Shown one piece after another: positions 12,501 to 61,526 of a DNA stretch of 64,000 nucleotides. Origin of the DNA: Hawksworthiomyces lignivorus (lineage: Eukaryota > Ascomycota > Sordariomycetes > Ophiostomatales > Ophiostomataceae); assembly GCA_002917075.1 (NCBI GenBank), contig NTMA01000036.1, forward strand, positions 186,001 to 250,000, in the 5' to 3' direction. The notes under the pieces are model-generated. The model was not told where the DNA came from and ran no database searches. It saw only the letters and a program-made list of their open reading frames with translations. Both the position numbers and the translations under genes were made by a program. How positions within the stretch are numbered: the stretch's first letter is position 1; each line of letters starts with the position of its first letter.

Positions 12501-13473
12501 GAGCTGGAGACCATCGGCTGGACGAACCGCTTCTTTACCATGTGGTTCGGCAACATGGACGTCTTCAGCCGCGTCCACGACAAGAAGCTGTGCATCTCCG
12601 CCATCGTCTCCCTCCTCTCCATCCCTCCCAGCAACATCCCTGCCAGCGTTTCTGTTGGCTGGCCAAGGCTTCTCAAGGTGCGTCTCTTTCCTCTGTCGCC
12701 CGCTTCCATAATTCTGCTTCTTCTCCGTCTCACGCTAACAACACATCACAGGGTGCCATTGCCATGTTCAGGACGCTGCCAGCGGCCATAAAGAGTATGC
12801 ACAAGATCTTCTCCTTAGCGATTGTTGGGCTTTTGCACATGTGCTTGCAGTTTTTCTAACTTTTTTGAATCTTAGACCGGGAGGATGCGCTTCAAGACGA
12901 CTTCCAGTTCGCCGGCGGCGCTGGCGACGACGAGTGGGATGACCCCGATGATGGCTGGGTCGAGGAGGAGGGTCCGATCGAGACAACGACCGAGACCAAG
13001 GACGAGAACACGGCCTATATCGAGTTCCTCAGCGAGGAGGCCCAGAAGATCGAGCGCCTGCGCAACCAGGCCGAGTCAACCGACGAGCTCGGCGAGGAGA
13101 GCTTGCTGCTCGAATCTTCTCTGGACAAGATTGAACCTTATCAGCTTTTCCGCAATGCCATAACCCGTACGTGCCATTCCAGCTACGACTGTTTTGCAGC
13201 CTTCTCATTCCCCCTTTCCTCTTTCATAATTTTCATGAGAATGGACTTTTTCATATTGCATTTCGGCTAACACTCTCAGAACTGGAACGCGACCAGCCGC
13301 AATTTTCTGCTGGCTTAGTAGGCCATCTGTCCCCAGACGAGCGAGGCATTATGGAATCCGTCTATGCCCAAGCCGACCGGGAAGCCCAGGCTGCTCAGAT
13401 TCTCTTCAACGAACAACGAAAGCTGATGACAGAAAACGGCGTTCCGGCGGCCAATGCTGTCCCACCAAGCTAG
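9589..13473 (+). CDS. NMD5: Importin beta-family karyopherin, importin-7/8 type (Nmd5/Kap119-like)
   Basis: Nuclear transport receptor of 1,080 aa. Exons: 9589-9684, 9775-9853, 10008-10653, 10784-12677, 12752-12794, 12876-13166 and 13280-13473, all GT-AG with consistent phases. The N-terminus has the Ran-binding importin-N layout (VRQTAEAQLKS, then LETDQGQNVKLSAAIYVKN) followed by HEAT-like helices throughout. Importin-7/8 hallmarks include HWDYPGRWP near residue 125, WWKAKKWAYFNLNRLF near 260, and an acidic patch (DDEWDDPDDGW) near residue 935, before the C-terminal helices. Family length is 1,040-1,050 aa, so it is full length. Yeast relatives are Nmd5/Kap119 and Sxm1/Kap108, which import ribosomal proteins, TFIIS and Hog1. 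Which one this matches is inference. Exon 5 is only 43 bases. It stands alone, with a CT-rich leader upstream. Confidence 0.92.
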
Positions 13474-42000: not shown

Positions 42001-44067
42001 ACTACTCAGCGTTTCCCTCTCAGACTTGCTGGCAGCCGACTCCTCCTTCGCCTCAGTATCTAACCAAGCCTGAACATGATTATAAGATGGTGGAGGTCTT
42101 GCTATTTCCCATGAGCGGATGCTGTGCTGTTGCTGTTTCCTTTGGGTTGGCGGATTTTTCGCTCTGCTGCCGTCACAAGGAGCAAACTCAGGGAGGAACT
42201 GAGGAGCCTTGCCAATACCCATTAGATCTTTTTTGCTGTCTCGAAAATCGGCTTCTCTGCTGAAGAAGGCATCCTGGTGGAGCTCATCGGGGCCAAATTT
42301 AGCCAGTGTGGTCATCACAGCCTTTATAGTTGGCGGCCGCTTGGCAAACGCCATGGTCTTGCCGGAGAGAAGATAAAATGACCCACATGCCGTGGCTGGT
42401 TTGCCCCTTTTTTGTGCTTCAGATCCTCCAACTTCATTTGATTTCTCAGACGAGCCAGGAGCCACACGATGATATCTCTTTAGTTTTCCGACCGCATTGT
42501 CATGGCGTGGCGTAGAACGCTGCTCAAGCGAAAACTCTGGTGTCGAGGGAACAACGGCAGTTGCATTACCGTCGTCCCCGCCGCCATCGTTGTCTTTGTC
42601 GCTAGCCTTGGCTACAATTGGCAACGATTTGGGCTCATCCTCCCGTGGAAAAGCGGACTTCACCACGGAAAATTTCTGTGACAGCGGCCGATGAGCGTTC
42701 TTTAAACCGCGTTGCTTTCGTTTTTTGATTTGCAGTTCTTGGGATCGGCGCGGGTCGGATTGCCGACTGCGCCGCGATTCATTGCTGAACGAAACCTTTC
42801 CTGGGCCCCCGCGGTCTGCCTCTGTAGAATTGCTAACCTGATGCTTCAATTCAGGGGAATGAGAAGGAGTGCTTTCTGCTGCGGGCAGGATATCTCCTTT
42901 GTGACCTCCCGACTGCTCTGTATCCATCGCTACCACTGAACTCTCACCCGAGTCAGAACCGCCAAAGAGCACACTTTCTTCATCTCCCTGCCACTTCCGC
43001 TTGAGCTTCTTATTGCCGGATCGCGCTGCCGGCGGGTAGAAATCTTCGACAGACTGGCGGATGGTTGGCAATTCGTCGGCAAGTGGATCGTGCGGATGAT
43101 GGGAACGCCCATCGCGAAGTCGTTCGGACTCAATGATGTCTGCGATCTGTTGTCTGTACTCATCTTCGTGCAGCCATGGCGCAGGTGTCCGCCGCGGGTC
43201 AGAGGATGAAGCGCCCAGCTGAGCAAAGGCCTCTTGAGTGCTGATCATCTCCCAGATCTTGCGTTCTCTAGCACTCTTCTTCCCCTTCTTGTCGTACTTG
43301 GCTGCCATCTCCCGCCAAAGCACTGCCATGCTATAGACAAGTCGCTGGCTAGGGTCTACAGGAATCTCGGGAAGATTTTCATGTTGCCAGCGCTCAGGTA
43401 CGGCGTGGCGATTTTCAATACCATGTGCAAAGATGTCCACTTCCACCGGACAGCTGCCCCTGCTAGACGCGGAAGTGCGTAAAAAGGCCTCGGTAGCGTC
43501 CAGAGTGTCGCAGCCGTATAGGTTGTAATCAGTCATAAACTGCAGCAGGAAGGGAATGTGCGACTCGTGCGGCTGGAGCTTGGGGATACCAGCGATGCGG
43601 CCTTGGCGTAAAATATCGGCCACGCGAATCACAAGAGACGGGTCCAGGAGATAGATTTTGAGATAGAGACGAAAGCCAACATGAAATCCATAAAAGGGTA
43701 TGGCCCGGACAAGGGAGATGGCGAGCACCACATTACGCCCGACAGCCTGGTCGATGCCATTTCGGAGGCTAGCGATGATGCGGTCGGATTCGGAGAACTG
43801 GAAGAGGTCGTAAGGAACATACAGGTACGGAAAGACGCCGTGGATGTGAGCACAAGCGATCTGGCCGTTTCCGGTTGCGCCAAAGATGCGTATTATTGGC
43901 ACGCGCACTTCTGTATCAGGCTGCTGCTGCTCGTCGCCATGGCCGCCGAGGATATTCTGGTTGCCGACATGACTGCTTTTCGGGATCGGGGCGCGAGAGG
44001 CAGCACGGTCGGCTTCTGTCGGTGGCGCCAGACAGTAGTCGAGGCAGTGGATGCGCACCTGGAACAT
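39064..44067 (-). CDS. REV3: DNA polymerase zeta catalytic subunit
   Basis: Translesion-synthesis B-family polymerase of 1,667 aa in one uninterrupted exon. The start MFQVRIHCLDYCLAPP is the family's N-terminus. The N-terminal domain spans about residues 1-230 and is followed by a long Ser/Lys-rich linker (about 290-620). A degenerate exonuclease-like region contains DPDILAGYEIVASSWGYL (about 820). Polymerase motifs follow: DFTSLYPSLMIAYNL near 1017 (motif A), KLLANVTYGYTSASFSGRMP near 1180 (motif B), and ELVYGDTDSLFVHL near 1234 (motif C, catalytic Asp pair). The C-terminus carries CysA (CARC near 1504 and CKSC near 1585) and CysB (CRYC near 1610, then CENMTC), which in Rev3 bind zinc and a 4Fe-4S cluster for Pol31/Pol32. 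It is complete and divergent from SLA2. Confidence 0.96.
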   Translation of the reverse strand: MFQVRIHCLDYCLAPPTEADRAASRAPIPKSSHVGNQNILGGHGDEQQQPDTEVRVPIIRIFGATGNGQIACAHIHGVFPYLYVPYDLFQFSESDRIIASLRNGIDQAVGRNVVLAISLVRAIPFYGFHVGFRLYLKIYLLDPSLVIRVADILRQGRIAGIPKLQPHESHIPFLLQFMTDYNLYGCDTLDATEAFLRTSASSRGSCPVEVDIFAHGIENRHAVPERWQHENLPEIPVDPSQRLVYSMAVLWREMAAKYDKKGKKSARERKIWEMISTQEAFAQLGASSSDPRRTPAPWLHEDEYRQQIADIIESERLRDGRSHHPHDPLADELPTIRQSVEDFYPPAARSGNKKLKRKWQGDEESVLFGGSDSGESSVVAMDTEQSGGHKGDILPAAESTPSHSPELKHQVSNSTEADRGGPGKVSFSNESRRSRQSDPRRSQELQIKKRKQRGLKNAHRPLSQKFSVVKSAFPREDEPKSLPIVAKASDKDNDGGGDDGNATAVVPSTPEFSLEQRSTPRHDNAVGKLKRYHRVAPGSSEKSNEVGGSEAQKRGKPATACGSFYLLSGKTMAFAKRPPTIKAVMTTLAKFGPDELHQDAFFSREADFRDSKKDLMGIGKAPQFLPEFAPCDGSRAKNPPTQRKQQQHSIRSWEIARPPPSYNHVQAWLDTEAKEESAASKSERETLSSTQQRISNAGLSQKERAAARTKKSGIALDMRCLCLEVHANSRGTFLPNPERDAIQCVFWKVTGGDGIGSDGITSDVDADRISDKSKGGGVISVSRSLRDDFSVEVAADERDLIQRVVRLVHSFDPDILAGYEIVASSWGYLSERASLCEMDLWQELSRVSQPRVVPFYERGQGVTGRYMLSIGLIMRANIDLRQYTLESAAWHVLGRRVPFYRPQVLTTWMSSGRPRDFSRAIRYYRRRTAVDLALINAIELVPRTSEQARVLGIDFASVLDRGSQFKVESVMLRVAKPENFVMPSPNHEQVGQQNAAECTPLVLEPRSAFYSSPVVVLDFTSLYPSLMIAYNLCYSTYVGRLDPLYHEKKMEAAQKDKERQHDAAGDPADSGSKGDIPGNEAESAESDTEALIRKHVEMAATKMGFTTYERPVGMLEQLSQLGIVIAPTGMMYVGARTRQSLLAKMLAEILDTRVMVKAAMKKTAAKKVAERQRLNNRQLALKLLANVTYGYTSASFSGRMPCVEVADSIVQTGRQTLDRAIALIHSVKRWNAELVYGDTDSLFVHLPGRTREQAFQIGAEMAEAVTASNPHPVRLKFEKVYHPCVLLTKKRYVGYEYDTPDQVEPIFDAKGIETVRRDGSPASAKVLEECLRILFDSADLSRVKSYLQARFDDVIHDRLPIADLCFAKDVRQPGSYRAPPPGAVVASRRMAQDPRAVLLPGERVPYVVIAGPPGTPLRDRCVAPEEVVKNRHLRIDSDYYIQNSLIPPLDRIFRLVDVEVLQWYLEMPRARMPLRTIDPAPTQQNPGGYIGQQTLDTWLRGSRCARCDQPVKRKRRRWPELYGEESAATSADDPGSAEGDSDDFLGNDNDWDLGTGSETENSFGPPGQQQTSSTKTPVLCKSCTKDNRGTLLFLQSRARDAEAAYREALRGCRYCAGLGPRDEVRCENMTCPVYFVRTERAVQVRIERSKAPLIDILARRGLKDLDW

Positions 44068-44898
44068 CCTAGCAGAAGATGCATGATGTGTTTTGTGAAG
44101 AGATTTGCATTGTACAGCAAGAGGATGTTGATGGTGTCTGTTGTGCAGTTTTGACGCGTTTGATAAAGAACAGATGTGGGTTTGGCGGCACTGGCGACAA
44201 TGGCAACAACAACAAACAACAGTAATTATGCTTAATACTGATTAAGCCGCCTATGAGCCTGCATCGCCAATTGCCAATTGCCAATTGCCAATTTAGGCGC
44301 CGGGCATGAACTAATACTTTGGTTACAGGGGTACCTAGAACACCAGAGAACACCTGGAACGCTTAGAAAAAACAAAAAGCTACGGGAGTACAGAGTTAGT
44401 TATGCGGGGCGGGGCAGCCAACAGCAGCAGGCGCGCCCGTTGGGAATGTTGCAGGAACGACCTGGCCTCCCTGGTTTGCCCTTGCCATTTTTGATTGCGT
44501 CACGTATTCGACGTACATAATGTGGGGCGCCTTCCAAATTAAGCACCCTCGACCGCTGCCACGTTTTTCCGATAGCCGGAACAGCTTACGCCGCAATTTG
44601 CGTGTCACACGCTAGGCGGAGCTTGTTTCGAGGCAGCAATATGCCAGCCTCCTTAAACTTTGACCTGCCAATATCAACGGGGCCGCATCATCGTGCAGCT
44701 GCACCTGCTACGTCTAATCTCGCTCGTGCCGCATTGCAACAAGATTCTGCAGTCGCTGGATCATCTATTTATCTGTTTACTCAATCGACAGAAAGAGTCT
44801 CTTGTTTTCTGTCCCGGCATTCTTGCCTGTGAAGCAGCTCTCCCAACAGCTATCTCTTCCCGGCTGATCCGTCACGCCCTAGGGCAGCTTCGCCCATC
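44068..44898. promoter_or_regulatory. Divergent promoter region between REV3 and SLA2
   Basis: An 831-base spacer between two start codons in opposite directions, so both promoters must lie here. It contains four tandem CCAATTG units (separate entry). No open frame inside is supportable. Confidence 0.7.
44267..44293. repeat. Tandem CCAATTG heptamer, 3 full units plus CCAATT
   Basis: Four consecutive CCAAT pentamers spaced exactly 7 bases apart, 199 bases upstream of the REV3 start and 606 bases upstream of the SLA2 start. CCAAT is the binding core of the fungal HAP complex (CBC). The CAATTG core is palindromic, so an ATTGG-like signal is partly present on the other strand too. Confidence 0.9.
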
Positions 44899-47800
44899 AT
44901 GACGACCCAGGGTCATGCAAAGTTTGTCTCCCTTTTCAATCCGGCTTCACTTTGTTCTCATCCGCTAACTGGACTTCTACGTTGACTTACAGGACCGACC
45001 GCGAGCTCGCGATCAACATTCAGAAAGCCACCAACCCTGAAGAAACAGCTCCCAAACGCAAGCATGTCCGCAGCTGCATCGTCTACACGTGGGACAACAA
45101 GTCGTCTCTCGCCTTCTGGGCGGGAATGAAAGTGTGCGTCGCTCTTCGGTGTCTCTTCTTCATACGCTTTCTCCTCTCGATGAACCAGCACTAACTGTGA
45201 TTTCCTCGTCTTGCAGCCAGCCGATCCTCGCCGACGAAGTGCAGACATTTAAGGCCCTGATCACCATACACAAGGTCCTGCAGGAGGGGCATCCCATCGC
45301 GCTGAAGGAAGCTATAGCAAACCGCTCATGGATTGAGTCGCTGGGCCGTGGTTCTGAGGGCATGCGCGGCTATGGCCCCCTGATCCACGAGTATGTGCGC
45401 TACTTGCTTGCCAAGCTCGCCTTCCACCACCAGCATCCCAACTTCAACGGCACATTTGAATACGAGGAGTACCTGTCTCTGAAGCTCATCAACGATCCCA
45501 ACGAGGGCTACGAGGTGATCACCGACCTCATGTCCTTGCAGGACAAGATCGACACGTTCCAGAAGCTCATCTTTGCGCACTTCCGGCATTCGGCCAACGA
45601 GTGCCGTATCTCTGCTCTTGTGCCACTCGTGCAAGAGAGCTATGGTCTTTACAAATTTGTCACAAGCATGCTCCGTGCAATGCACCAGTGTATGTCGACT
45701 TTCTGTTTGTTGACGCTGTCGCTGTCGGGTCTTTCCTGCTAATCGTGCCTTCCCGCGTCAAAGCCACCGGCGATGACGAGGCTCTCCAGCCGCTCCGCGA
45801 GCGCTACGATGCCGAGCACTACCGACTAGTCAAGTTCTACTACGAATGCTCCAACCTCCGCTATCTCACGTCGCTTATTACCGTCCCGAAGCTGCCGCCA
45901 GACCCACCTAACCTGTTGGCCGACGAGGGCACGGCGCCTGCCCTGCCGCAGCGGCCGAAGCAGGAAATAGAGCGCGAACCATCGCCGCCGCCCATACCCA
46001 AGTCAGATGAGCCGGACGAGATGAACGAGTTCTGGACGAACGAGATCGAGCGTCAGAACCAGGAATTCGCCGACCAGCAGCGGGTGCTCGAGGAGCGTGC
46101 CGCCCAGCAGGCCCTGGCGCAGCAGCAGGCTGCTCTGCGCGCCCAGCAAGAGTTTGAGGAGCAGCAGCGCGCACTTGCCGAGCAGCAGCGGCGCGAGCAA
46201 GAGGCCCTCGTGGCGCAGCAGGCGCAGTGGCAGACCCAGGGCCGCCTGGCCGAGCTCGAGCGGGAGAATCTCAACGCCCGCGCCCAGTACGAGCGGGACC
46301 AGCTCCTGCTGCAGCAGTACGACGCGCGAGTCAAGGCGCTGGAGGGCGAGCTGCTGCAGCAGCAAGAAAACGCGAACCGCCAGCAGGGTGCCAAGGACGA
46401 CCAGATCCGGGCGCTGCAGGAGCAGGTGAACACGTGGCGGACCAAGTACGATGCTCTTGCCAAGCTGTATGCCCAGCTGCGTCACGAGCACCTTGACCTG
46501 CTGCAGAAGTTCAAGCAGGTGCAGCTCAAGGCGGCGTCTGCCCAAGAGGCCGTCGACCGGCGCGAGAAGCTCGAGCGCGAGCTCAAGACCAAGAACCTGG
46601 AGCTCGCCGACATGATTCGCGAGCGCGACCGCGCTCTGCACGACCGCGACCGGCTGAAGGGCTCCAACAAGGACGAGCTCGACCGTCTGCAGCGCGAGCT
46701 GCGGCTTGCCCAGGACCGTGCCGACAATCTGGAGAGGTCCAAGGGCAACGAGCTCTCGACTATGGTGTCCAAATACCACCGCGAGCTGGCGGATCTGGAA
46801 GAGGCTCTGCGGCAGAAGACGCTCGCTCTCGACGAGGCGCGGGGCCAGATGCGCAACGGGTCTTCGGACCTGGAGCGCGCTCTGCGCGAGAAGGAGGACG
46901 AGCTTGCCGTCTACAAGGCCGGCATGGACCAGGCTCTCGAAGAGCTCGAGGTGTTGAAGGAAGGACAGGTAGGGCTAAGCACAACTTTAAATGCTCTTTC
47001 AAAAAGTTACATGTCTTCTGGTATACTGTGCTAAACGCTTCTTTTCTCCAACAGTCCGCCGACCGCGAGATCGATTCTCTCGTCGTTGGAAAGCTCGATG
47101 ACCTTATCGACGCCGTTCTCGATGCTGCGGCGACCCGTGTTGATGATTCACTCTACGAACTTGACTCTACGCTCCACGCCGGTAACCCCTCGGCGATGCC
47201 TCCGTACCTCATGTCTCAAGTCGAAAAGGCCTCCTCCGCAGCTATGGAGTGCGCGACGGCGTTCAACAACTACATCGCAGACGGCCCGAACACACCCCCG
47301 CAGGCTCTGGCCGATCTGCCCAAGAACATCTCTACGCTGGCCAGCTCTGTCGCCGATCTCGTGCCCAGCGTGAAGGGTATTGCGCGGCGGACGACGGACG
47401 ACGACAAGCTCGTGAATGCCGCGCGGGTGGCTGCGCAAGCCACGGCGCGCTTTTTCCGCAACTTGCAGAGCTGGCGGCTGGATGGCTTGGACGCGATCCA
47501 AAGGACGGACGTCGTTATCAATGGCAACAACGACGTGCAGCTCACCCTGCAGGCGCTGAACAAGCTGGTGGACGTGCTGCCGCGCGGGTTTACGCTGGCC
47601 AAGGGCGGCGATCCTAGCGAGATTGTGGAGAAGGAGCTGGCCAAGGCCGCCGATGCCGTCAAGGCCGCCGCGGCGCGGCTGGCGGCTCTGCGCAACAAGC
47701 CGCGCGACCCGTTCGCCGCCTACGAGGTGAAGGTGCACGAGGCCATCCTGGACGCAGCAGCGGCAGTCACCTCGGCCGTGGCCGAGCTGGTGCGCGCAGC

Positions 47801-48320
47801 CACTGCGGCGCAGAACGACATCGTGCAGGCCGGACGCGGCACGTCGTCGCGCACGGCGTTCTACAAGAAGAACAACCGCTGGACCGAAGGTCTCATCTCG
47901 GCAGCCAAGGCGGTGGCAGCGTCGACCAACACGCTCATCGAGACGGCAGACGGCGTGCTGTCAGGCCGCAACAGCCCTGAGCAGCTGATCGTGGCGTCTA
48001 ACAACGTGGCGGCCAGCACAGCACAACTGGTGGCGGCCAGTCGCGTGCGGGCAGTGGGCGGGCTGGCGAGCCGGACCCAGGAAGCGCTGGAGGTGGCCAG
48101 CAAGTCGGTGGGCGCGGCCTGCCGGTCGCTGGTGCGGCAGGTGCAGGAGCTGCTCAAGCCCGAGTCCGAAGAGGCTGTGGACTACTCGAAGCTGGGCTCG
48201 CACGAGTTCAAGGTGCGCGAGATGGAGCAGCAGGTCGAGATTCTGCAGCTGGAGAACGCGCTGTCGGCCGCGCGGCGGCGGCTGGGCGAGATGCGCAAGA
48301 TCTCTTACCAGGAAGAATAA
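44899..48320 (+). CDS. SLA2: Endocytic adaptor Sla2/End4 (Hip1R family)
   Basis: Cortical actin-patch protein coupling clathrin-coated membrane to actin; 1,035 aa. Exons: 44899-44921, 44993-45133, 45217-45689, 45764-46968 and 47055-48320. The first donor is GTTTGT, with branch site GCTAAC and acceptor TTACAG; the others start GTGCGT, GTATGT and GTAGGG. The ANTH lipid-binding domain (about residues 5-270) includes EETAPKRKHVRSCIVYTW and DEVQTFKALITIHKVLQEGH. A Gln/Glu/Arg-rich coiled coil spans about 320-610. The THATCH/I-LWEQ actin-binding domain fills the last about 230 residues, ending in SAARRRLGEMRKISYQEE. Length matches fungal orthologues. SLA2 is the classic border gene of ascomycete MAT loci, and here the alpha-box gene follows 1.4 kb downstream. 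Confidence 0.95.
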
Positions 48321-49685
48321 GAGGGAGAAGCCTAGCGACGTGCCTATGCTCCTCGTCTCGCTTTGTCCCTATTTTGCTTTTACTGATACGTTCTGGCCTC
48401 CCGTTTACAACTTTACATTAGTGTCTTTCTCTCTCTTTTTTTTTTGCCCTCCCCCAATTTCGTCTTCTCAATTATCCATCTAGTCTGTACATAGCAAAAC
48501 CAGAGGGAGCAAGAATGAAGTTTGTCTCTACGCGCATAAGAAGCACACGTGAAGTATAATGTGAACTGCAAACCGAAGACGCAGTGTTTGCGGCCCTACA
48601 CAATACGCAAACAAAAGACGCAGGAGGAAAGAGGCTGGCGGTGGGCACTTTCCGAAAAAGGAATGAGCAGACTAATAAAAATGAATGTGGAGACTTCGTC
48701 GAGCCATGTCATTTACTTCAATGCTGTAAATCATCAGCACCTGAAGTGATGCGGTCATCGAGGAGCGCCGCGAACAATGTGCTGTGAATATAATCTCATC
48801 GAGAAAGTCAAAATGAAAGCGAGAGTGAATAGAGGAAGTTCATCAAGTGAGGAATGTGGAAAGAATGGCTTCTTGATTCGTGAGGGTAATGCGGCTTTCT
48901 ATTGTTTGCTCTTCAGTCCATTTCCAGCTTTCTCCACTTCCTCGTTTTCTCCACTCCTCACCTTCCTCACTTTGCTCAACTTCCTCACTCTCCTCACTTC
49001 CCTCACCTTCCTCACCTTCTTGAATTACCTCGACTATCTCAGTTTCACCAACCTTCTTGATTATCTTTCTTTTAAGCATTCTTGTTAATAGTTGCTATGG
49101 CAATTAGCACTATTCCACGAATGCTGGCATTGACTATATGAAGGAAGAGATTTCATTGATAGGAAATAAAGTCTTGAAAAAAGTGCAGCTAGCTGTCCCG
49201 CATATCCATTCCCAACTACGCACTCCGTACTGGTGATCTTGCGCTAGCAGCCTTGTTCCTGTTTATATTGCATGCATGCGGAGCTTGTTTCCTCCCTGAT
49301 TTATATTTTCTTACATTTACCGCACGCGTCCAATAGTCCTTGTTCCTCTCCTCTCTGAGCTTCTGCGGTCTTTGTCTTTCCCTTCTCCCCTGTTCTTTCA
49401 TTGAAACCTCCACCGTAGTAGTATCCCAGGCGCTCCTTGCTCACGACTCTCCCTTTGCATTTCTTATTCATTCAGCACAATGTTTCCGGGCGTGCTCTTA
49501 TCCTTTCGTTGCTGGGGTCTAGATTGCCGGCCAATTGAAAAAGGACGCGGGGTCCGCAGCGGCAGCTGTTTGTAAATGATTAGCAAAACACTATGTAAGA
49601 AACAACAAAGGAAAGTGAATGAAGACAAGGGGAAGACAGATGAAAATAGAACAAAGGAGAGGCAATGGATATTTCCATGCATGCT
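48321..49685. other. Spacer between SLA2 and MAT1-1-1
   Basis: A convergent spacer holding the 3' ends of both genes. It includes a low-complexity CTCACTTCC/CTCACCTTC tandem tract at about 48930-49020, which makes a spurious Glu-rich frame on the minus strand. No gene is supported. Confidence 0.6.
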
Positions 49686-51978
49686 TTACACACCCCTCGT
49701 AGCCTCGTCCTCCGTGAACCCCAGCAGGCGGTCCATCGACGCCGGCTGGGTAATGTCTAGCGCTTCTGCTGTTTCCTGTGTGTTGAAAAAATCCGCAATC
49801 ACGGAATCGTGACCGGTACTGTGCATGTTTGGCGCCGCCGTGGCATATCCGTATGTGGCCAGAGCAGCAGTGGCGGCAGTCGCGTGGGCCGCCAGGGATA
49901 TCTCGTGGGCACGCATGCTCGTGTCGTTTGTAGTGCCACTATTGCCAGTAATACAGCTCTTCTGACCTTGTACTAGCTGAGGCTGGAGCTGGTTGCGGTA
50001 TATCTCGCCGAAAATAGGCGGTCGCTGGTGGCGAGCGAGTTGTGCACACATCTCGACCTCGTTCTGATTCAGTGTGTCTAGAAGGTAATGCAAATCATGT
50101 TGTAGGCGGTTGCGCTTTTTAGGTGGCGGCTCGGACGACATAGTGTGAACAGTACTACCGATAGATGTTGAAGCAGTGGCGTATCCGTCCCAGCTATCGC
50201 CGTGTCCGCGTTTTCCAAGGCTGGCTCCTCCATAAGCGCTGACCGGCGCAGTTGATGTGAGATCGACAAAGCGAATGCCGGCATCGCCTGCTAGGTGAGC
50301 GCTACTAACGAAAGATTGGTCAAAAAACTCCATATCTTCGTCATAAGCATTGATGTGGCTAGTCCTCTTGACCATAGCGCTGCTGTTGAACTCGTTGGCA
50401 AAAAGCGTTTTGTTGATGAATGGGTCCTGGCACTGTAATCCTTCGGCGTTCACAACAGTCTCTGCATCGGATACATGCCCAGCGCTTGCTTCATCGTCTT
50501 GTCTAGAAGCTCCTAGAGTAATGTCCTGAAGCCAACACATTTCGGCAGAGTTTACTCCCATTTTGACATAGGTTTCAGAAGGCGTAACAGAGACATTGTT
50601 GCTGATGCCACGGCGTCGGAGGTGGCTTCCTTGATGGATACCTAAGTTGTCACTGGACTGATTGGCAGTGCTGCTAGAAATGATGCTACCGTCAGCCAGT
50701 GATGGCTGGCTGTTGATCACATAGGATTTTCCGCTATTGTGGAAGGCCTGGAGCGGTATCTGCTGCTTGTAGCTTGGCGTGGCCTTGCTCAGAGTGACGT
50801 TATGACCATCGTTAATCCAATTCTGTTTCTTAGTTTGCCAGTCCTCGTTGTCTTGCTCCCGTTCGCCTCGAGAACTCATATAAAACGGCCCTGCCATAGC
50901 GTGTGCCATCGTCGCCATCTCACCGTTAGTCTGCATGGCAACGGCCCTGTCGCCGCCCTCAGGTTGCACATTACAAAAGACGTGGTTTTTCACATGGTCG
51001 GCTTTGTCGACAACGAGCACGTCGAAGTTGAAAGCTCTATCTCTGGAGAATAGCTGGGCTGCTGCTGCAATGGGGTTATGCTTTATTGTGTGTGAAAAGC
51101 CTGAGGTTCCGAACGCGACAGGGAACTCTCCTCTAATGAGCATCTCGTACGCCTTGGAGTACAGCTTCTGAACCAGCCATTGTTTCTGGGCATTCGCAGT
51201 TTTGCTGTTAGAGTCATTCGACGTTTTGCAATCCAGGCAAAGGCCCTGGTCAAACACTGCCTGTAAGAGCTCATGCTCTGCGTAAAGCCCAGCAGCTGCA
51301 TGATCATCCCCGAAGGATGTCTTTTTGGTTGCGTTTCTCCTGGCTTCAGCCGTTACTGTATCCTCGCTCTCCTTAGCAAATGCAAAGGCAGCAACGGAAA
51401 TGTTTTCCTTATTTCTCTCTTTGAATTCTTGGAAAGTTGAACTCTCGATCAAAGATCCAGGGATGCTTGATCCATTTTGTTTGCTTTTCCCACTGGTACT
51501 ATCCCGCACTGACAGTATGTCTGTTGTTCTCGATTTCCATTTAATTGAGTCCGTGTACTTAATTAGACTCAGCTGCCCAGCGTCTCCCTCCAACAAGGCA
51601 AATCCTTGTTCTTTCAAATACACATCGAGTGGAGGGATTCTGAGCACATTACAGGCGTGCTCCAAGAAAGAAGGCAAAGACACTGCATCCTTCCCCAATT
51701 CGGCTCGTAAATAGGAGAACACCTTGGCCATCATCGTCCATTGATTTTTGTAGGGATCAATGTTCCACAACGCTGTCAAGATACCTGATCGTTCTTTTTG
51801 CTGCATGTTAGGAAGCATTTTATTGTAAAATGCTAGTTCAATATTAGTCCAAGTTGAAGAGAAGGAAGTTTGAGGTTCACTCACAACGGAAAGCAATAAA
51901 TGCATTTAGAGGACGTGGATGAGAGACTGTTCCTTCTTTTCCAGTTAAATTCTGGCTGTTAGTTTCTACCAACGGCAT
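49686..51978 (-). CDS. MAT1-1-1: Mating-type alpha-box transcription factor MAT1-1-1
   Basis: Master regulator of the MAT1-1 mating type; 746 aa from two exons, 51978-51885 and 51832-49686. The intron starts GTGAGT, ends ACTAG and splits a Ser codon. After joining, the alpha box is clear at about residues 20-112: HPRPLNAFIAFRSFY, QQKERSGILTALWNIDP, then NQWTMMAKVFSYLRAELGK and a C-terminal helix ending YLKEQGFAL. The intron inside the alpha-box start is at the position usual for this gene. Most Sordariomycete MAT1-1-1 proteins are about 300-450 aa, so the tail of about 630 residues, rich in Ser, Thr, Asn and Ala with no domain that I recognise, is unusually long. Hidden in-frame introns in the tail cannot be excluded. 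Transcription is towards SLA2. Confidence 0.9.
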
Positions 51979-52854
51979 GGCTATTTTTGAAGACCTAGAT
52001 TGATAGATATCTAGTGCAAGAAGACAATAAAGTTGGGAATATGGCAATAAAATGAAAGAGTGCCTTAAGCGTGGAACGATGGAGAAATTTTGATGGGCAA
52101 GTACTTAGACTTCTTGTAAGAAGAAGAAGCGAGGGGAGAGTGGAAGAAGTCGGATTTGTATGAAAATTCTATGAAAGGGAGAGAATGCCGTATATTGTTT
52201 GTTGTACAGACTTACTTTTTCATCTTTTTATCACTTTTCACTTTTTGCAATCTAACTCTAAGCTCGCCTGCCATCATTTCTTTCGCTAAAATAATTACTC
52301 TTTCACCGAAATTTCAATCTGCTCTGTAGCCATTCCTTCCACAATACAACCAAACCCTTACTCAGGAATTATGTATGTCATCTGCTCTTGCTCCTGTATG
52401 TATTCTACCTCTGGAACTGTGCCCGTGGAAATTTCTTCGACTCTGCAACAAAGATGGTCAAGACGTGGAAGATTTGGTATATGCGTAGATCTGCCCTACT
52501 CATTATTAGTACTTAGGAATAAATCATGGAAATTGTTAGCCAGTACTTACAAATTTTCCGGTGACCATGTCTCGCACATCTATACTATATCTCTCTCTCT
52601 AGCTTTAGTTAGAAATAATTATCCCATTTTTTCCTGTGTTTGATGCTTGAGTTATGTTTTGGGAGTAACAACGCTATAGTAATGCTATACCTCAATATTA
52701 ACACGATCTCGAACAGGGTAAGATAGCCCTGTTTCGACAGCGAGCAGTTCATTTTTTTGCTGTCTATATGTTAGATATGTTTTAACCTGGAATTGACGAG
52801 GTACCTACCAAAAGCTCTCGACTAGAAGAGTTCGTCATCTAACATATATAACGA
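51979..52854. promoter_or_regulatory. Spacer upstream of MAT1-1-1, downstream of MAT1-1-2
   Basis: 0.9 kb of AT-rich DNA holding the MAT1-1-1 promoter and the end of the next minus-strand gene. A plus-strand frame of 90 codons (52371-52643) has no features and is not called. Confidence 0.5.
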
Positions 52855-53709
52855 TTAGCTCTTGTAGCTATTGTTTAATGGCATTCCACAACCCACCTTG
52901 GTTGGAGCTTCACTGTGCATGAGCATCTGGGTTGATTCAAGATGTTTCAAGAGTCTCATAGAGGGAGTAGCGTGGTACCATTCGACTTCAAGACGTGTTT
53001 TGGCATTATAAAAACTTCCTGGCGTCATATCGTAGTGGAATTTCCCCCACGAGCTGCCAGGTATGTTCCGACAAGGATGAAAATCACCAGCGGGCTCCCA
53101 ATCCGCATCTTCTTTGCTCCACACCAGAACCTCTCCATCTCGTGTCAACATTATGTCGTGAAATGGCCGAAGTCCGTATTTTTCTCCGGGAGCCACCGCA
53201 TCATGATTAGTATTCATATGCTTCTGAGATTGATTGATGCTGTCCTTCATTTTCTTGTACAACTTTCCTTGCTGGACAATGTATTCTTTGAGTTCATCTA
53301 TGACTGAGAGATCGTTCACGGTCTGGAGCGCCCTAATCATGCCCTCCAATCTAGTGACAATTTCAAGGAGCTGGTCAAGAACAAAAAACGTATTCGAGAG
53401 ACAATTCTGGTATTTCTCTCGAGAACCTAACAAAAATTGAAATGATTTTGCGATGCTTTCCCCCTCTTGGTTATCGTTGAGAGCATCCTGCTGAACGCAT
53501 GTGGATTCAATTTCTTTTCGTATAGAAGAAAGACGTGTTTGATTCATTTCATGGGAGACAGTCTCCTTCAGGATATCTGTAGCAAATGCAGCGACCCTTG
53601 ATTCCTTGCCGTGCCGAATTTCGCAGTCTGAAACGATCTCCCTCGCAACTTGGATAGTACGAGCTGACATTTCGATAAATGTGGCTGCGTCCTGCGACTG
53701 TCCATGCAT
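52855..53709 (-). CDS. MAT1-1-2: Probable MAT1-1-2 protein
   Basis: An uninterrupted frame of 284 codons between the alpha-box and HMG genes, the slot and orientation normally held by MAT1-1-2. The C-terminal part contains GDFHPCRNIPGSSWGKFHY (about residues 215-235), fitting the conserved His-Pro-Gly-Trp pattern described for MAT1-1-2 proteins. The N-terminal 170 residues are helical and charged. There is no signal peptide or known DNA-binding domain. MAT1-1-2 is needed for fruiting-body development in several Sordariomycetes. A good splice acceptor (TTTTATTTTCAG) lies 16 bases before the ATG and the frame stays open back to it, so an upstream coding exon or a leader intron is likely, and the true N-terminus may be longer. 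The family call rests mainly on position plus the HPG-like motif. Confidence 0.65.
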   Translation of the reverse strand: MHGQSQDAATFIEMSARTIQVAREIVSDCEIRHGKESRVAAFATDILKETVSHEMNQTRLSSIRKEIESTCVQQDALNDNQEGESIAKSFQFLLGSREKYQNCLSNTFFVLDQLLEIVTRLEGMIRALQTVNDLSVIDELKEYIVQQGKLYKKMKDSINQSQKHMNTNHDAVAPGEKYGLRPFHDIMLTRDGEVLVWSKEDADWEPAGDFHPCRNIPGSSWGKFHYDMTPGSFYNAKTRLEVEWYHATPSMRLLKHLESTQMLMHSEAPTKVGCGMPLNNSYKS

Positions 53710-54195
53710 TGTTTGATTCCGCTTCCTGAAAATAAAAAGAGAGATAAAATATTAATAAATTGGCACGTAATTTGGAATTAGAGGCCTAGAAAGTTGGCAG
53801 TATGCTTGACAGTAGCAGAAGAAAAACATATGAGTAAGAGCTTGTAGTTCGGTCGGCTTTCATATTAGCATTGTTCCACTTTTTGTTTGTCTTGTAGCAT
53901 CTGTCAATGACATTCTGCAAGCAAACGCAGGTAGGAAATAGTGATATTTGCAGCTTCGATACAAAATTTCTAGAAAGGCCCGAATCATCAAATATCAACT
54001 CAGGACTTTCTTGCCATACGTTCAGGTTCAAATATCTCATATTCTCTACTCTAGTTTGCCGTAATTTCTCACACTATCATCCTGAAGACAGTTCCATTTC
54101 CCTTCACTTCACGGCAGCTCAAATAAGTATTTTAAGAAAATATCGCTTTTCTAACTTCTACAACCTTCTAAACTATCGTTAGGAAAAGAGGCAAG
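53710..54195. promoter_or_regulatory. Divergent spacer between MAT1-1-2 and HMG-box gene
   Basis: Fewer than 500 bases between oppositely oriented MAT genes, so it is the shared promoter region. An 84-codon minus-strand frame (53786-54040) inside could include an upstream MAT1-1-2 exon, but I found no donor with the required phase. It is otherwise AT-rich. Confidence 0.55.
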
Positions 54196-54899
54196 ATGTC
54201 TACTTCAGACGCGCGCCGAATCACTTTCATTGTCAACGATGACGAAAAGAAATTCATCGTCGTCATTCCACAGGAACTTATTAGCATCCATCATCTTAGG
54301 AGAGTGGCTTGCAATTATCAGTATGTCCCCTGGGTGTATTTTCTGGATTGTCTACGACTAATTTCTGTAGATATATGACAGAATCTGATTGTTCTATTAT
54401 ATATGATGCCCATGCAAAATCATATCGGCTTGTGCAGACGCCGGACAGTGTTGCTATTGATACTCGCCGCTTTGATGTTATTGGTCATGCAAAAGGTATG
54501 CTTCTCTCCCAGCTCTATATATGTATTTCTTCTGACCTGTATGCTTTGTAGTCACGGAAGACGAGAAATCTTCACAGCCGCTGATGCCGAAGACTCGCAT
54601 TCCTCGTCCCCCAAATGCGTGGATAATCTATCGCTCTCACAAATCAAAAGATATTCGTCGAAAACTTCCTCATGTCACAGCTGGATATATCTGTAAGTGA
54701 TGAGCTTTTTTGCTTTCCATTTACACTAAAAGTCAGCAAATACTGATTTATACTAGCAACTCTTGTGTCTCAGATGTGGAAACAAGAAAGCCGACAGGTT
54801 CGTCTACAATACAATTCGAAAGCACTGGCTGCTCAGAAACTCCACAAAGAGATGTATCCGAATTACAAATACAATGCGGACGGCAAGAAAAAAAAATGA
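54196..54899 (+). CDS. MAT1-1-3: Mating-type HMG-box transcription factor, best read as MAT1-1-3
   Basis: A DNA-binding protein of 177 aa in four exons: 54196-54320, 54371-54495, 54552-54692 and 54757-54899. Introns start GTATGT, GTATGC and GTAAGT and end TAG, with consistent phases. The HMG box spans about residues 99-170 (RIPRPPNAWIIYRSHKSKD, VSQMWKQESRQVRLQYNSKA, KEMYPNYKYN) and sits at the very C-terminus. The third intron splits a Ser codon inside the box, as is usual for MAT HMG genes. Small size, C-terminal box and position beside MAT1-1-2 favour MAT1-1-3. MAT1-2-1 proteins are usually larger with a more central box. If it were MAT1-2-1 instead, the locus would be of homothallic type. 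A basic tail ends in four Lys. Confidence 0.78.
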
Positions 54900-57800
54900 G
54901 CATTTATACTGCCGAAGTTGTGATTTATTTATTTATTTTTTGCTGCAGCAGAATATGAGCATGGGAGCCTGCTGGATGAGATGCATCAAGAGTGAAAAGA
55001 GACTGCGCGCCATTCTTCTAATCCTAACTTTATTTCGCCCGTCAAGAATTTTTTGGGCAACTCCTACGCTTTGCCTCGCAGTTTTTCTTTCGAATCGAAC
55101 TTTTCTAATGTTTTAATTTTGCCTCCGCTGATTCTATTACCCTTCATTTCAATATTCAACTGGAAAGGTAGTAAATAAACGGTACAAGCTAGGTGCGAGA
55201 AAGAAACTAGGGAGCATAATATCATTATTTCAATGTGGTCCAACTGGAGGGCAGGAATAGATCCGTATGCTTGGAAAGTAAGCCTTTTACTGCAACAGGA
55301 ATGATGCTCAAAAAAAAATTCTGTGTTGATGTAGTTTGTTCTGTGGCAGCGTATGGTAGGCAAACAAGTAAAATTAACCAAGGTATGCAAATGCAGAGGC
55401 AATAATCCTTGTGACTGGCGCCATGCTTAACTTTTTGTCTATCCCTTCCTTCTTCAGATATTTGAATTCTCTAACTTGATATCAATACAAATAATACACT
55501 AGCTTTCGACTCAACCAGGCAAAGACTTCGAAGCAGGTAAACATACTTTCTACAGAATTTCTACTTTTCTCCATCATATTCTATTGGTTATCAGTTCTTC
55601 CCCAGATATCTCTTGCATTTTCTTATTGGTTTTATTTATTGTTCTATCGTTCGTTGTCAACTTAAACTATTCGACCTCAGTACGCTTAACAGTATATAGC
55701 TTGTCTCATCAATCCTTTAATTAAATATGTCAATGTTTCTTGATTTGCTTTTCTAATTCTCTTCGGCCTCACATCCTTGATGTTGATAGTATGCCAATGC
55801 ATTTTCTCCGTTGTTGGTCGCCTAGCTTGTCAGCCCTAGCAATACTGCTGTTGGCTTGCTCCATGTTATTTAACAACACAGCCTTTGGGTGGCTTGTCCC
55901 TTGCTTCTAAACTTCCAACAGGTCCCTGCTCTATTGGAATATTTTATAATTATTCTGAATTTTCCGCGTCACATCGCTTGTCATTAAAAGCAAGTGCCCA
56001 AATTTCTTCAAGCTATTTCCTATTAATGGCATGCCTGTAGTTGTATCCCTTGCCTCACTTTCTTCGACTTCAATGTCTTGGCTTGAACTATTTCAAAGTC
56101 CTTCACTTAACCTTAATCATCTTCTTCTCTTAGTAGCCAATCCAATTATGGCATTTTGTATTTTGTTACACAAATTCTGTTTATCTAATTCATAGTTCGT
56201 ATGTCCAATTGCTAGAACTATTCTATTGACATTTGCAGTCTTGGATTAAGATCTCTGAAATTTTACGGGGACTTTGAGGGGTTCAACTTATATGTGTGAT
56301 TGGATTATCGAAAATGGCTGTTTCCCGAAACATTCCGTGATTTATTCGGTTTTCGTCATCACATCTCGGTTTCCTGTCTTATTGGTGCCTTTACCATCAA
56401 TGCCATATTTCGAATCCCTTTCTCTTCTCCCTTGCAGAACATATTTTATCAATAATATGATGGAGGACAAAGCGATAGGCTACACGTAAGGCTCAGGTCG
56501 AGAGCGATCTTGCATGGTATAGGCATGCCGAAGACTACGGCTGCTTGTATTTTCCTTTTCCTGATATTCCCTCATAGGTTTAGGCAGCAGAAAGTCAGGA
56601 GATAGCAAGCGAAAATTGTAGAATAGAGTCATGCATATTTCTATTACCAATATAAGATTATCTACCTTTATAAGCTAATCGAGAAATTTGGCAAGCTGAC
56701 TCTAGAAGATTACTTCAGGCAGTTCTCCTACAACCTCGTTATCCTATAATTATACTCCTTCCTCGAGCAATTCTTCTTCCATGCCCAGCAAAACCAGATA
56801 AATTTGGAATATAATTATATATGACTGATTAACATTATTTATTTTAGTAGTGGGCTAAGTTCGATCTAAGTTATGGATTCTCCGCGTATATGTAAATACA
56901 AGTAGCCATGAAGTTGTAGTAGCTGGTGTTAAAAACGGGGTTCAAAGCAAACACAAAGATACAAAACTTTGCTTGCGCTTGATATGTAATTGGACGTTGT
57001 CGTTAAGGGAATTAAAGAATTCAAATAATACATTTTGTTGTCTCCATAAAAATAATATAATCAAATGCATTAACGACACAGATATAAAGATATCAATACC
57101 ATGTCATCACCACCTAACATGAAAAAAAAAAAAAAGCTGAATGTCTAACTCCGAGAGTAGAAATGAGAGAATAACTAAGACAATCGAGCAAATAACGAAG
57201 CATCCATACAGATACAAGAAGATAGTAAAGCCACGCAATTAGTTGAGTAGAGCGAAAGAGAAATTAATAGACGAAGGTTGACAAACAGGATTTCAATGCT
57301 CCGCAGAGAAGAGGCGGGAAATAGATCGAGAAAGGGGCTAAACTTTGATTATTAGAGTGTATGCCGCTCTATTAAACACACTGAGGAGCTTCGCATTAAA
57401 GAACCAGAATGAAGCTTGAGGCAGTATTATATCCACTTTTTCGTACTAGCATGTAATATGTCTCCTAGATTATCATTCAGCCATGCGTCAACGGCACACT
57501 CGAAATAATGGCGGAATATGTGCTGAAAAATTTGAGGTTATGTATACTGATTTCTGTCTACTCAGAGATTGGGGATGCCCTCACAGCTCTTAGAAACCGT
57601 CACTGATTTGTCGATCGAGCACTACTAGTAAGACTTGTCTATTGAGAGGGCAAGGTAGTTGGCGGCCGCGTTCACATTGTAGCTGCAGGACAATTTTGCT
57701 TTATTTGGGTTGAGGCAAGAGAACTGAGATAAAGGCATTGGCATTGTTTGCTGGTGGTAGCATTGTGTTTCCCAGACCGTGATTCAGGTCTCGGCACAAG

Positions 57801-60800
57801 GTATCCACATAATATCTGATAGCATACCTTTTCTAGCGTAAGGCTGACACGATTAAGCGCACGAAACAAATTTTAGAGGAAATAGCTAGGAACTTATAGT
57901 TTCTGCAAAGGCAGAAGCACTGAAAGTATACTCTCAAGTATCACTTAATCGTGGCCAAGCTGTCTCTGCAATTTCTCTTCATAGATACAAATCTAACGAC
58001 GCCGATGAGCTGGGTGAAACTACCTGTAATTTACGAAGTTATATAAGTGTGACTAGAACACGGACGTTTTTCTTACTCCTAGAGGAATTCCTATTTCGTG
58101 ATGAAGAATGTTCTTGGGAGGAGAATGAGTCTGGAATAAACAAATATAAGGACTTGTACAAAAAGTATCAGATTTCCAACGGCTGCATTATCTAGTGGGG
58201 TCGGTGGGGAAAATATTAAGAAGACAGAAACGAAAAATGGAAATATTTTGCTATTTTGTCTAAAGATTTGGCCAGCAAAATTTTTCTATTATCTTCATTA
58301 TTGAAGCCTCATAGATATGATGTTTCAAGCATCAAGCTTAGTGATACAAGGGTAAAAAGACGTACTGGCTTTGTGCGAAGTGATTATCTAACGGTCATGA
58401 CCCCTGAATCCGAGTGTAAAAAGCTCGTAAAGCAGAAACAATAAGAAACAAACGGAAAGCTATACGAAATAATATCATATAGACCATAAGCTTTCTTCGA
58501 GGAAAGGATTTGATGTGGCAATGCCGTCGGGATATGAAGGCCATAGTTTATTTAAATAAGGGGGAAATGAAGGGTAAAAAAAACCAATAAACTAAGATAT
58601 AATAAAAGGTATGGTCCAAAAAAGTAGCGACGCAGGACAGTAACTTTTTTTCTTTTATCGACAGTTACCAAAACAGCCTGAGTCTTATCCGATCTCCTTG
58701 CTAGTTAGGATTATTGGGCTACCTTATACCTTAAATGTCTCGCCGTTCTTGTTCTTTGTATATGCATGCTTTTGTTGCAGTTTACTTTAAACACGAAAGT
58801 GACGGTTCTTGATGATTCAATATCTTATAGTTGAGATATCAGAAATACCGTTCATCATTGTTTCATGGAACTCATTGATTGTCGGCGTCAGTGGTCAAGT
58901 TTTGGCATTGCACGTCGGTTCGGAGCGAGTGTCCTTAGAACGGCTTGGAGGCCCGCACGACTGGTTGCTACCGCGGCTCTTGACTTGACATAGACTCAAC
59001 TAAATTGCGAATATTGGGGAGAAAAAACACTCATGACTGTCTTGATCATGACCCTTCATCAATGAGATTGATTCTGAAGAAGAATTTTGTGAAAGGTACA
59101 TACGTGGTTATTGATGTTCCTGCGAAGATTTGATATTTTTGAAAATTTTAATGCTCGGTATCGTGGATCATTTCATCTTCTGAAATCTCTTGATCTGGCT
59201 GTTGTCTCTGCTCACGTTGCAGCCGTGAATGTGGCTGCAACCGCCGGTTGTGTTGCCTATAATACTCTTCTGACTGATTTCCTTATGCATAGGAAGAGAG
59301 TCATGGTTACGCATTGAACAATTGTAATAATGAGGCCGATCATCACAATAGCCTTATCACATGGACCTGTAGAGATTTTCTTACCACTTTCCCACTGTGA
59401 TCTCATAAAAGGCTGGTTTCCAGAGTGATGAGATCTAGTGTTTTAATACACAGAATAACATTCCTGAGATGGACTCCTACTTAATTGTTTTGAAGACAAA
59501 TTTCTGGCTTCGGCTACCGGTCACTTGTTACCATCCTCTGTTTTCCTATCCATAGGTGATAAGAGCAACTTTGTCGCCATATCCAGAGTCACAACTATGC
59601 TATAATGAGTGATCTGAAGCCGTTTAAGCTTCGGCTTTGCTTGCTTCATTAAGAGGAAGATGTATCGTGGTCTCCTAACATCTAACAGCCCTAAACACTA
59701 CGGTCAAGCTGGACGTAAAGGATAGACTGCCAAGCATTCGTGATAGCGTCAACTTCTCTTAAGAGATGTCAGCATCAGCTATGATTGCAATTTTTATTCA
59801 AGACTGATTTATGCTGAAACTGAAGCCGAAGCCGTCTACACTTATTGAAACCTGCGTGCAGCTCTGATTGCGAGACTTCATTGATCGTGGTCGTTGAGGA
59901 ACAGATGTTGGGGGAGATGGTTTAAATCGCTTGAACAGCAGCTCCATTTATTCGTGCTTCCTATGAAGGCATCAAAGATATTTGGCTCTGGGTATATGTA
60001 ACTAGAGGAGTTTCAATTACAATCTTTGCTTGCTTTATCATTGCTTTTCTGCTTTATTCTTCAATTAATTCCGGATCCCAATCTATGGAACTAGTTGCTA
60101 TAGTCTTTGAACATAATAAAATTGGTATTTCTTCAAAATTGATGCCCCTTCGCGGCGTAGACATGGTTGTCTTGACTTTGTTTTTGTTACCTGAATCGGA
60201 ATAACGCTACGGTTTTGAAAGCGGCACACTATGATTATTAGCATTCTCTCTGGGCTCTCCGGTCGTCCTCTCTGGTCGTCTTCACGACCTGTTTTTCTTA
60301 AACTTAAATTTACTTACAAAAAGAGCTTGAGCTTCACCGATGGGTCACGAAGGTGATATTCCAGTTATTGGAGTCAGTGAACTTGCCTTTTTTGGCCCTT
60401 AAGGTGGCGTCGGCTCTGTTGACCACCACGATGCTGGTACCGCTTTTCATGTCGTCAGGAATCGAAATGGCACTTTAACTTACTGTTATGGGGATGACCA
60501 TGTTGCCAGGAAAAGGTCCAAAGGGATAAAGTTTTACAGGATCTACGCCTTTAGTTGCTTCCACAATGATATATGTACTTGTAAGTGACTTATTGCTATG
60601 GCGAAACCTATATCTTGCTAATTATAAGATGGGTCTATCTCCGCCAACATGGGGGAAAATAGAGTCACTTCGAGGAGCCTGCATAAATCTTACATATACA
60701 AAAGGGAGGTTTATTTATTCTTGACTTGATACATGTATGTCTCATCTTTTTATGAAGATGTTGAAAACCTTAGAAGAAGCGACATTGCTGCTCTGATTTC

Positions 60801-60865
60801 ACCTTAGCTTCCCCGCTACCCTTCTATCAACGCTCTCTGGGTACATTCTAAATAATTACCCTGAT
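54900..60865. other. AT-rich gene-free region where APN2 would be expected
   Basis: Almost 6 kb between the MAT HMG gene and COX13. No open frame exceeds about 75 codons and no exonuclease III-type APN2 motif is visible, although APN2 usually lies here in Sordariomycetes. AT content and TpA density are high, and stop codons fill all frames. This would suit RIP-degraded or expanded non-coding DNA. A short degraded stretch around 56680-56790 keeps a few protein-like words (KLTLEDYFRQFSYNLVIL) that could come from an old transposon; this is weak. Confidence 0.6.
60321..60600 (-). pseudogene. Possible degraded coding remnant, family not recognised
   Basis: Two protein-like minus-strand stretches sit next to each other. 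One reads STYIIVEATKGVDPVKLYPF followed by GPFPGNMVIPIT, ending at a GTAAGT. The other reads SIPDDMKSGTSIVVVNRADA and continues to NNWNITFVTHR and a stop. The codon composition is more coding-like than the surrounding AT-rich DNA. I could not find a start, an acceptor or a family. It could be two short exons of a small gene, or the relic of one. Confidence 0.25.
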
Positions 60866-61526
60866 TTATACGACCTTGTCCTTGTTGTGGTAGTTGACTT
60901 TGTCGTTCCAGCTGGAGAAAAGGAAAGTTAGCCCGTTGTAGACACACCTAAAGTAGCATTGAGAAATTTCCTCGGTGATTCAACCATCACTTACAAAAGG
61001 GTCTTGTCGCCATCGCCCCAGGAGAAGTTCTTGGTGCGGATGTTCTGGTACGGGTATTCGACGCGCTCCTCCAGAGGGGGCAGGTGGTTCCAGTGCTCCC
61101 AATGCTCATTCCACAGGTAATAAGCGTTGGCGCCAGCCGCAACTAGGGCCGGGATGGTGACACTGTTCCCTTCGGTTAGTACGATTTGCAGACCACATAA
61201 ACAAGTAACCGTGCTCCTAGTAGCAGAAGTGATGATCGTTGTCGTCGTGAGCAGTCGAGGTTTCGGACCGGAAGCTTACAAGATGGAAATATTGCGCCAG
61301 AGACCTGTGCATATTAGCAGTCCGATCGTAGTCTTCACAGCGGACGAATCGAGTTGTCCGAAGCTCCAGGAGCAAAGGGATACTCACCAGTCGTCTGGCC
61401 AGCGTGCTCCTTGACAGCGCGGCGCTCACGAACGAACGCGCTTTCGCCGGGGGTGCCAGCAGACGGGGCCGAGAAGAAGCGGCGGGCAGCCGGCATCGCA
61501 CGGCGGGTGAACGCAGAGCGCAGCAT
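60866..61526 (-). CDS. COX13: Cytochrome c oxidase subunit VIa
   Basis: A small nuclear-encoded inner-membrane subunit of complex IV; 125 aa in four exons: 61526-61388, 61304-61280, 61162-60995 and 60911-60866. Exon 2 is only 25 bases, and all introns are GT-AG in phase. The N-terminus is Arg/Ala/Ser-rich without acidic residues for about 30 residues (MLRSAFTRRAMPAARRFFSA), a typical mitochondrial presequence. A single membrane segment crosses the exon 2/3 join (LWRNISIFVTIPALVAAGAN). Conserved VIa features follow: EHWEHWNHLPPLEERVEYPY, NIRTKNFSWGDGDKTLFWND. COX13 is a standard neighbour of the ascomycete MAT locus, which supports the mating-type calls. Confidence 0.93.

What the first reader, a model, noticed from the sequence alone, without database searches (positions are those of the whole stretch)
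44899..61526. Complete MAT1-1 mating-type locus between SLA2 and COX13
After splicing, the alpha-box gene, a MAT1-1-2-like gene and an HMG-box gene lie in the order and orientations expected of a Sordariomycete MAT1-1 idiomorph, next to the border gene SLA2. This identifies the mating type of the sequenced strain and gives the full set of regulators in one piece.
Basis: partly seen in the sequence, partly recalled or inferred. Interest (0 to 1): 0.8.

Follow-up and report, generated by a model that had tools for sequence, protein, structure and literature searches.

The report
Fungal mating-type locus, MAT1-1 form
This is an intact set of MAT1-1 mating-type genes of a fungus from the order of blue-stain fungi and Sporothrix, laid out as in its known relatives, so it tells the strain's mating type but is ordinary biology.

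Summary
The finding is right. Between SLA2 (44899-48320, +) and COX13 (60866-61526, -) lie three open MAT genes: MAT1-1-1 (49686-51978, -, 746 aa), MAT1-1-2 (52855-53709, -, 284 aa) and MAT1-1-3 (54196-54899, +, 177 aa). Pfam E-values: alpha box 1.3e-30, MAT1-1-2 3.4e-8, HMG box 1.6e-14, COX6A 2.4e-52. Two SLA2 exons match ANTH and I/LWEQ. The named relatives of MAT1-1-1 (6 of 10 hits) and the nine best of 11 hits of MAT1-1-3 are Ophiostomatales. APN2 lies past COX13. The order SLA2-MAT-COX13-APN2 and the long MAT1-1-1 are as reported for Grosmannia clavigera and relatives (PMC3583454). A Grosmannia MAT1-2-1 query found no clear MAT1-2-1 in the 43.7 Mb assembly: its best hits, 37.3 bits, are two other HMG genes. 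As control, halves of 11 such proteins scored 36.6-316 bits, those of Leptographium 168-316. So this is most likely a MAT1-1 strain of a heterothallic type. One oddity: a 6 kb AT-rich, single-copy stretch between MAT1-1-3 and COX13 without a long frame. New member of a known kind; low interest.

The parts
44899..48320 (+). SLA2 (cytoskeleton assembly protein), left border gene; exons 44899-44921, 44993-45133, 45217-45689, 45764-46968, 47055-48320
   Evidence: Spliced open frame; ANTH 6e-47 on exon 3, I_LWEQ 3.2e-58 on exon 5
49686..51978 (-). MAT1-1-1, alpha-box regulator, 746 aa; exons 51978-51885 and 51832-49686
   Evidence: PF04769 1.3e-30; 10 relatives, 6 of 10 named, those 6 Ophiostomatales; splice model
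51833..51884 (-). 52-nt intron inside the MAT1-1-1 alpha box
   Evidence: GT-AG; joining gives a 27-residue stretch that agrees in 25 of 27 residues with Leptographium clavigerum P0002
52855..53709 (-). MAT1-1-2, 284 aa, unspliced model; a possible 3' intron at 52839-52896 would give 289 aa
   Evidence: PF17043 3.4e-8; alternative end
54196..54899 (+). MAT1-1-3, HMG-box regulator, 177 aa; exons 54196-54320, 54371-54495, 54552-54692, 54757-54899
   Evidence: PF00505 1.6e-14; 57-61% identical to the seven relatives aligned; splice model
54900..60865 (.). 5,966-bp AT-rich spacer (39% GC) in which no gene was recognised; genes made of short exons are not excluded
   Evidence: Longest stop-to-stop frame 120 aa; 200 shuffles of base content gave a median of 106, 5-95% 84-147; 55000-60800 matches only itself in the assembly; RIP indices not raised
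60866..61526 (-). COX13 (cytochrome c oxidase subunit VIa), right border gene, 125 aa; exons 61526-61388, 61304-61280, 61162-60995, 60911-60866
   Evidence: COX6A 2.4e-52; splice model

Best explanation
This is the MAT1-1 idiomorph of an ophiostomatalean fungus, in a strain that holds only this mating type. As in other Sordariomycetes, the alpha-box protein MAT1-1-1 and the HMG protein MAT1-1-3 would bind DNA and switch on mating-type-specific genes such as pheromone and receptor genes, with MAT1-1-2 acting in fruiting-body development; the fungus would need a MAT1-2 partner to mate. Shown here: gene content, order, open frames, family membership, no clear MAT1-2-1 in the assembly. Inferred from knowledge of these families: the regulatory roles and the need for a partner.
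For: Pfam matches over the curated cut-offs for all three MAT proteins. Named relatives are MAT1-1-1 of Ophiostoma and Leptographium/Grosmannia and MAT1-1-3-like proteins of Ophiostoma, Leptographium and Sporothrix. Same order SLA2-MAT-COX13-APN2 as reported for G. clavigera. The alpha-box family matches one place in the genome (2 candidates scored), and a truncated MAT1-1-1 finds only that gene. A Grosmannia aurea MAT1-2-1 gives at most 37.3 bits, in two other HMG genes, while the four halves of two Leptographium MAT1-2-1 proteins score 168-316 bits.
Against: No transcript data. MAT1-1-2 ends are uncertain and it was not compared with its relatives beyond Pfam. The assembly has 191 contigs, so an unassembled MAT1-2-1 is not excluded. 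Two of the 22 control halves (36.6 and 37.1 bits, from Neurospora and Colletotrichum) score no better than the two genomic HMG hits (37.3 bits), so a very divergent MAT1-2-1 is not excluded. The control was run on proteins cut by a motif rule, not on genomes with real introns.
Confidence: 0.95

Rival explanations
1. The species is homothallic, or can switch, with a second mating-type gene elsewhere in the genome.
For: Both idiomorphs are reported in a single-spore strain of another ophiostomatalean fungus, Wilhelmdebeerea oxyuri (PMC12930180, passage seen). O. novo-ulmi H327 has a divergent MATA-HMG gene far from its MAT1-1 locus (PMC4350166), and the present genome has other HMG genes, at C42 and C113 among others.
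Against: The C42 and C113 genes sit in long frames of 941 and 458 aa and are 33% and 27% identical to Grosmannia MAT1-2-1 over the HMG region (37.3 bits each), far below the Leptographium controls (168-316 bits). Homologues of the H327 gene are reported from genomes of either mating type, and selfing tests of H327 gave no perithecia.
Confidence: 0.04
2. The alpha-box and HMG genes are paralogous regulators unrelated to mating that happen to lie near SLA2.
For: HMG boxes are common: seven HMG matches in this genome, one of them MAT1-1-3 itself.
Against: The alpha-box family matches one place here, the three genes lie together beside the usual border genes, and the named relatives of MAT1-1-1 and five of the named relatives of MAT1-1-3 bear mating-type or alpha-box names.
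Confidence: 0.01

Closest known systems
MAT1-1 idiomorph of Grosmannia (Leptographium) clavigera B101 and related species, Tsui et al. 2013 (PMC3583454)
   Same: Three genes MAT1-1-1, MAT1-1-2, MAT1-1-3; SLA2 on one side, COX13 and APN2 on the other, COX13 between MAT and APN2; long MAT1-1-1 (619 aa there and 714 aa in O. montium, 746 aa here); MAT1-1-3 of similar size (171 and 177 aa).
   Different: MAT1-1-1 is 40% identical to the 619-aa Leptographium clavigerum protein; MAT1-1-2 is shorter (284 against 340 aa); MAT and APN2 are about 11 kb apart here (more than 10 kb, or at least 15 kb, in the paper's two statements); several putative genes are reported between MAT and APN2 there, while the part up to COX13 shows no recognised gene here.
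MAT1-1 locus of Ophiostoma novo-ulmi H327 (PMC4350166)
   Same: The same three MAT1-1 genes in one cluster in a strain of mating type 1, with a distant gene that has a MATA-like HMG box.
   Different: The trees group the window with Leptographium/Grosmannia rather than with Ophiostoma. Whether the HMG genes at C42 or C113 correspond to the H327 gene was not tested.

Membership tests
Sordariomycete MAT1-1 idiomorph | Alpha-box gene MAT1-1-1 | tested here: met
   PF04769 106.6 bits against a cut-off of 28.1
Sordariomycete MAT1-1 idiomorph | MAT1-1-2 gene | tested here: met
   PF17043 33.7 bits against a cut-off of 26.3
Sordariomycete MAT1-1 idiomorph | MAT1-1-3 HMG-box gene | tested here: met
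   PF00505 54.5 bits; 9 of 11 relatives are named Ophiostomatales, five of the nine under a mating-type name, four as hypothetical or HMG-box proteins
Sordariomycete MAT1-1 idiomorph | Position between SLA2 and APN2/COX13 | tested here: met
Sordariomycete MAT1-1 idiomorph | No MAT1-2-1 at the locus | tested here: met
   HMG_box and MAT1-2-1 searches of the genome match only MAT1-1-1 and MAT1-1-3 exons on C122, at 15-26 bits; control
Ophiostomatales-type MAT locus | COX13 between MAT and APN2 | tested here: met
   COX13 at 60866-61526; APN2-like frame at L019:1901-3967, that is C122:251901-253967, with PF03372 and the GRF zinc finger
Ophiostomatales-type MAT locus | Truncated MAT1-1-1 in the MAT1-2 idiomorph of the opposite mating type | not testable with these tools
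   No MAT1-2 strain is held; a truncated MAT1-1-1 (P0009) finds only the full-length gene here
Sordariomycete MAT1-1 idiomorph | Control of mating in crosses | not testable with these tools
   Needs culture

The most novel reading that the evidence does not exclude
The 6 kb AT-rich stretch between MAT1-1-3 and COX13 belongs to the non-recombining idiomorph in this lineage and holds a decayed gene, a gene of short exons or a non-coding regulator, so that the idiomorph border has moved outward compared with Grosmannia.
Probability: 0.1. Interest if true: 0.35.

Novelty: new member of a known kind. Interest (0 to 1): 0.15.

Why it matters
It gives the mating type of the sequenced strain and targets for mating-type PCR, and adds a divergent sequence near Leptographium/Grosmannia to the comparison of MAT loci in an order in which idiomorphs have exchanged gene pieces (Tsui et al. 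2013). It opens no new question.

Tried and rejected
Judged unlikely: a hidden MAT1-2-1 (control, with the overlap at 37 bits told under evidence against). Rejected: the gap as a repeat or RIP-mutated transposon: 55000-60800 matches only itself, its RIP indices lie within the range of the window, and no repeat longer than 25 nt was listed at the settings used. Not supported: long single-exon genes in the gap: the longest frame is within the shuffled range (shuffles kept base content only), and the two frames that I gave to Pfam, 120 and 101 aa, match no family. Shorter frames and spliced genes there were not tested.

Led nowhere: naming the species. I recalled Hawksworthiomyces lignivorus as a candidate from memory of its genome size; the paper I looked for is not held, and the listings gave nothing that I could tie to this assembly. 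A search of solved structures with the first 121 residues of MAT1-1-1 gave one weak HMG match, E 0.1. Early exon borders of MAT1-1-3 and SLA2 were off by one base and were corrected.

Full report
Observation. Three MAT genes lie between them. MAT1-1-1 (minus strand, 49686-51978) has one 52-nt intron inside the alpha box; the joined stretch RPLNAFIAFRSFYNKMLPNMQQKERSG agrees with Leptographium clavigerum P0002 in 25 of 27 residues. MAT1-1-2 (minus, 52855-53709) is read as one open frame of 284 aa; a 58-nt intron near its end would give 289 aa. MAT1-1-3 (plus, 54196-54899) has four exons, with the last intron in a serine codon inside the HMG box. That introns at these two places are usual for MAT alpha-box and HMG genes is recalled, not tested. 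The three MAT proteins and COX13 match their Pfam families over the curated cut-offs. Of SLA2 two of five exons were tested and match ANTH and I/LWEQ.

Relatives. Of 10 database relatives of MAT1-1-1, six carry names, all Leptographium, Grosmannia or Ophiostoma; eight of 10 carry the alpha-box family, and the other two are a truncated MAT1-1-1 and an unnamed protein (only the 7,995 candidates sharing most words were scored). Of 11 relatives of MAT1-1-3, nine are named Ophiostoma, Leptographium or Sporothrix (five of them named as mating-type proteins), one is unnamed and one is a weak Lentinus HMG match. These genera are Ophiostomatales. MAT1-1-3 is 57-61% identical to the seven relatives aligned. 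Trees of eight rows each group the window with Leptographium longiclavatum for MAT1-1-3 (support 99/96) and with three Leptographium/Grosmannia rows for MAT1-1-1 (96/95). Against this: for MAT1-1-3 the nearest row by path length and the highest identity is Ophiostoma montium (0.89, against 0.95 for Leptographium); one MAT1-1-1 row, P0008, has a very long branch; roots are midpoints, for drawing only. I chose seven of the 11 and seven of the 10 hits and left out P0018-P0021 and P0003, P0009, P0010. So 'near Leptographium/Grosmannia' is likely, not proven. No relative of MAT1-1-2 was sought beyond Pfam.

Surroundings. The window is contig C122:186001-250000 of a 43.7 Mb, 191-contig assembly. APN2 lies beyond COX13: a frame with the endonuclease domain and the GRF zinc finger is at C122:251901-253967, about 11 kb from MAT1-1-3. 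Tsui et al. describe SLA2 on one side of MAT and COX13 and APN2 on the other in Grosmannia clavigera, with COX13 between MAT and APN2, and MAT1-1-1 of 619 aa, or 714 aa in O. montium (PMC3583454; I saw the abstract, the first of three parts of Results, one Discussion section and passages; not its figures). Between MAT1-1-3 and COX13 is a 5,966-bp stretch of 39% GC whose longest frame (120 aa) is within the range of shuffles; 55000-60800 matches only itself in the assembly, and its RIP indices are not raised. Only two of its frames were given to Pfam, without a match, so a gene of short exons is not excluded. In G. clavigera several putative genes are reported between MAT and APN2; the passages I saw do not say which lie before COX13.

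Mating type. The alpha-box family matches one place (2 candidates scored). A truncated relative of MAT1-1-1 finds only the same frame. HMG boxes match at seven places (11 candidates scored; counts are lower bounds), one of them the second half of the MAT1-1-3 box; its first half was not reported, which shows the limit of that search for split boxes. A Grosmannia aurea MAT1-2-1 query gives six matches at E up to 10: two of 37.3 bits in long frames at C113 and C42, and four of 15-16 bits, of which three overlap exons of MAT1-1-1 and MAT1-1-3 and one is at C169. As a control, 11 of the 28 proteins found with a mat a-1 query, nine of them with mating-type or HMG-protein names, the other two being the Neurospora match P0022 and a hypothetical Neonectria protein (P0040), were cut in two by a motif rule: 22 of 22 halves score 36.6 to 316 bits, the two Leptographium proteins 168 to 316. 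Two of the 22 halves score below the two genomic hits. So a MAT1-2-1 like those of Leptographium is very unlikely to have been missed in the assembled sequence, while a very divergent one is not excluded. O. novo-ulmi H327 has a divergent HMG gene with homologues in Sordariomycete genomes of either mating type (PMC4350166, section 25 read); that C42 or C113 corresponds to it is a guess.

Mechanism. That MAT1-1-1 and MAT1-1-3 regulate mating identity as DNA-binding proteins, and that MAT1-1-2 acts in fruiting-body development, is knowledge of these families, not shown here. The lack of a clear MAT1-2-1 fits a heterothallic species, but Wilhelmdebeerea oxyuri, of the same order, is reported to hold both idiomorphs (PMC12930180, passages seen).

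Verdict. A real, correctly interpreted MAT1-1 locus of a known type in an unnamed ophiostomatalean fungus. Ordinary.

Noticed in passing
39064-44241 (-): Long open frame of 1725 aa that matches the catalytic subunit of DNA polymerase zeta (REV3_N 7.9e-12, DNA_pol_B 1.3e-101), next to SLA2 on the other strand.
   Followed up: partly
54900-60865: AT-rich 6 kb stretch without a recognised gene between MAT1-1-3 and COX13; 55000-60800 is single copy in the assembly.
   Followed up: partly
16576-18387 (-): Ubiquitin carboxyl-terminal hydrolase with a ubiquitin-like domain (UCH 6.6e-53, ubiquitin 6.5e-8).
   Followed up: no
9995-12791 (+): Importin/exportin-like gene (IBN_N 4.9e-5 and Cse1 2.1e-6 in neighbouring frames).
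   Followed up: no
26913-27605 (-): Frame that matches part of an MFS transporter of the TRI12 family (5.3e-35).
   Followed up: no
L003 (C42:53332-53520) and L004 (C113:386982-387188): Two other HMG-box genes, the best genomic matches to MAT1-2-1 (37.3 bits each); whether one corresponds to the divergent HMG gene reported in Ophiostoma novo-ulmi H327 was not tested.
   Followed up: partly
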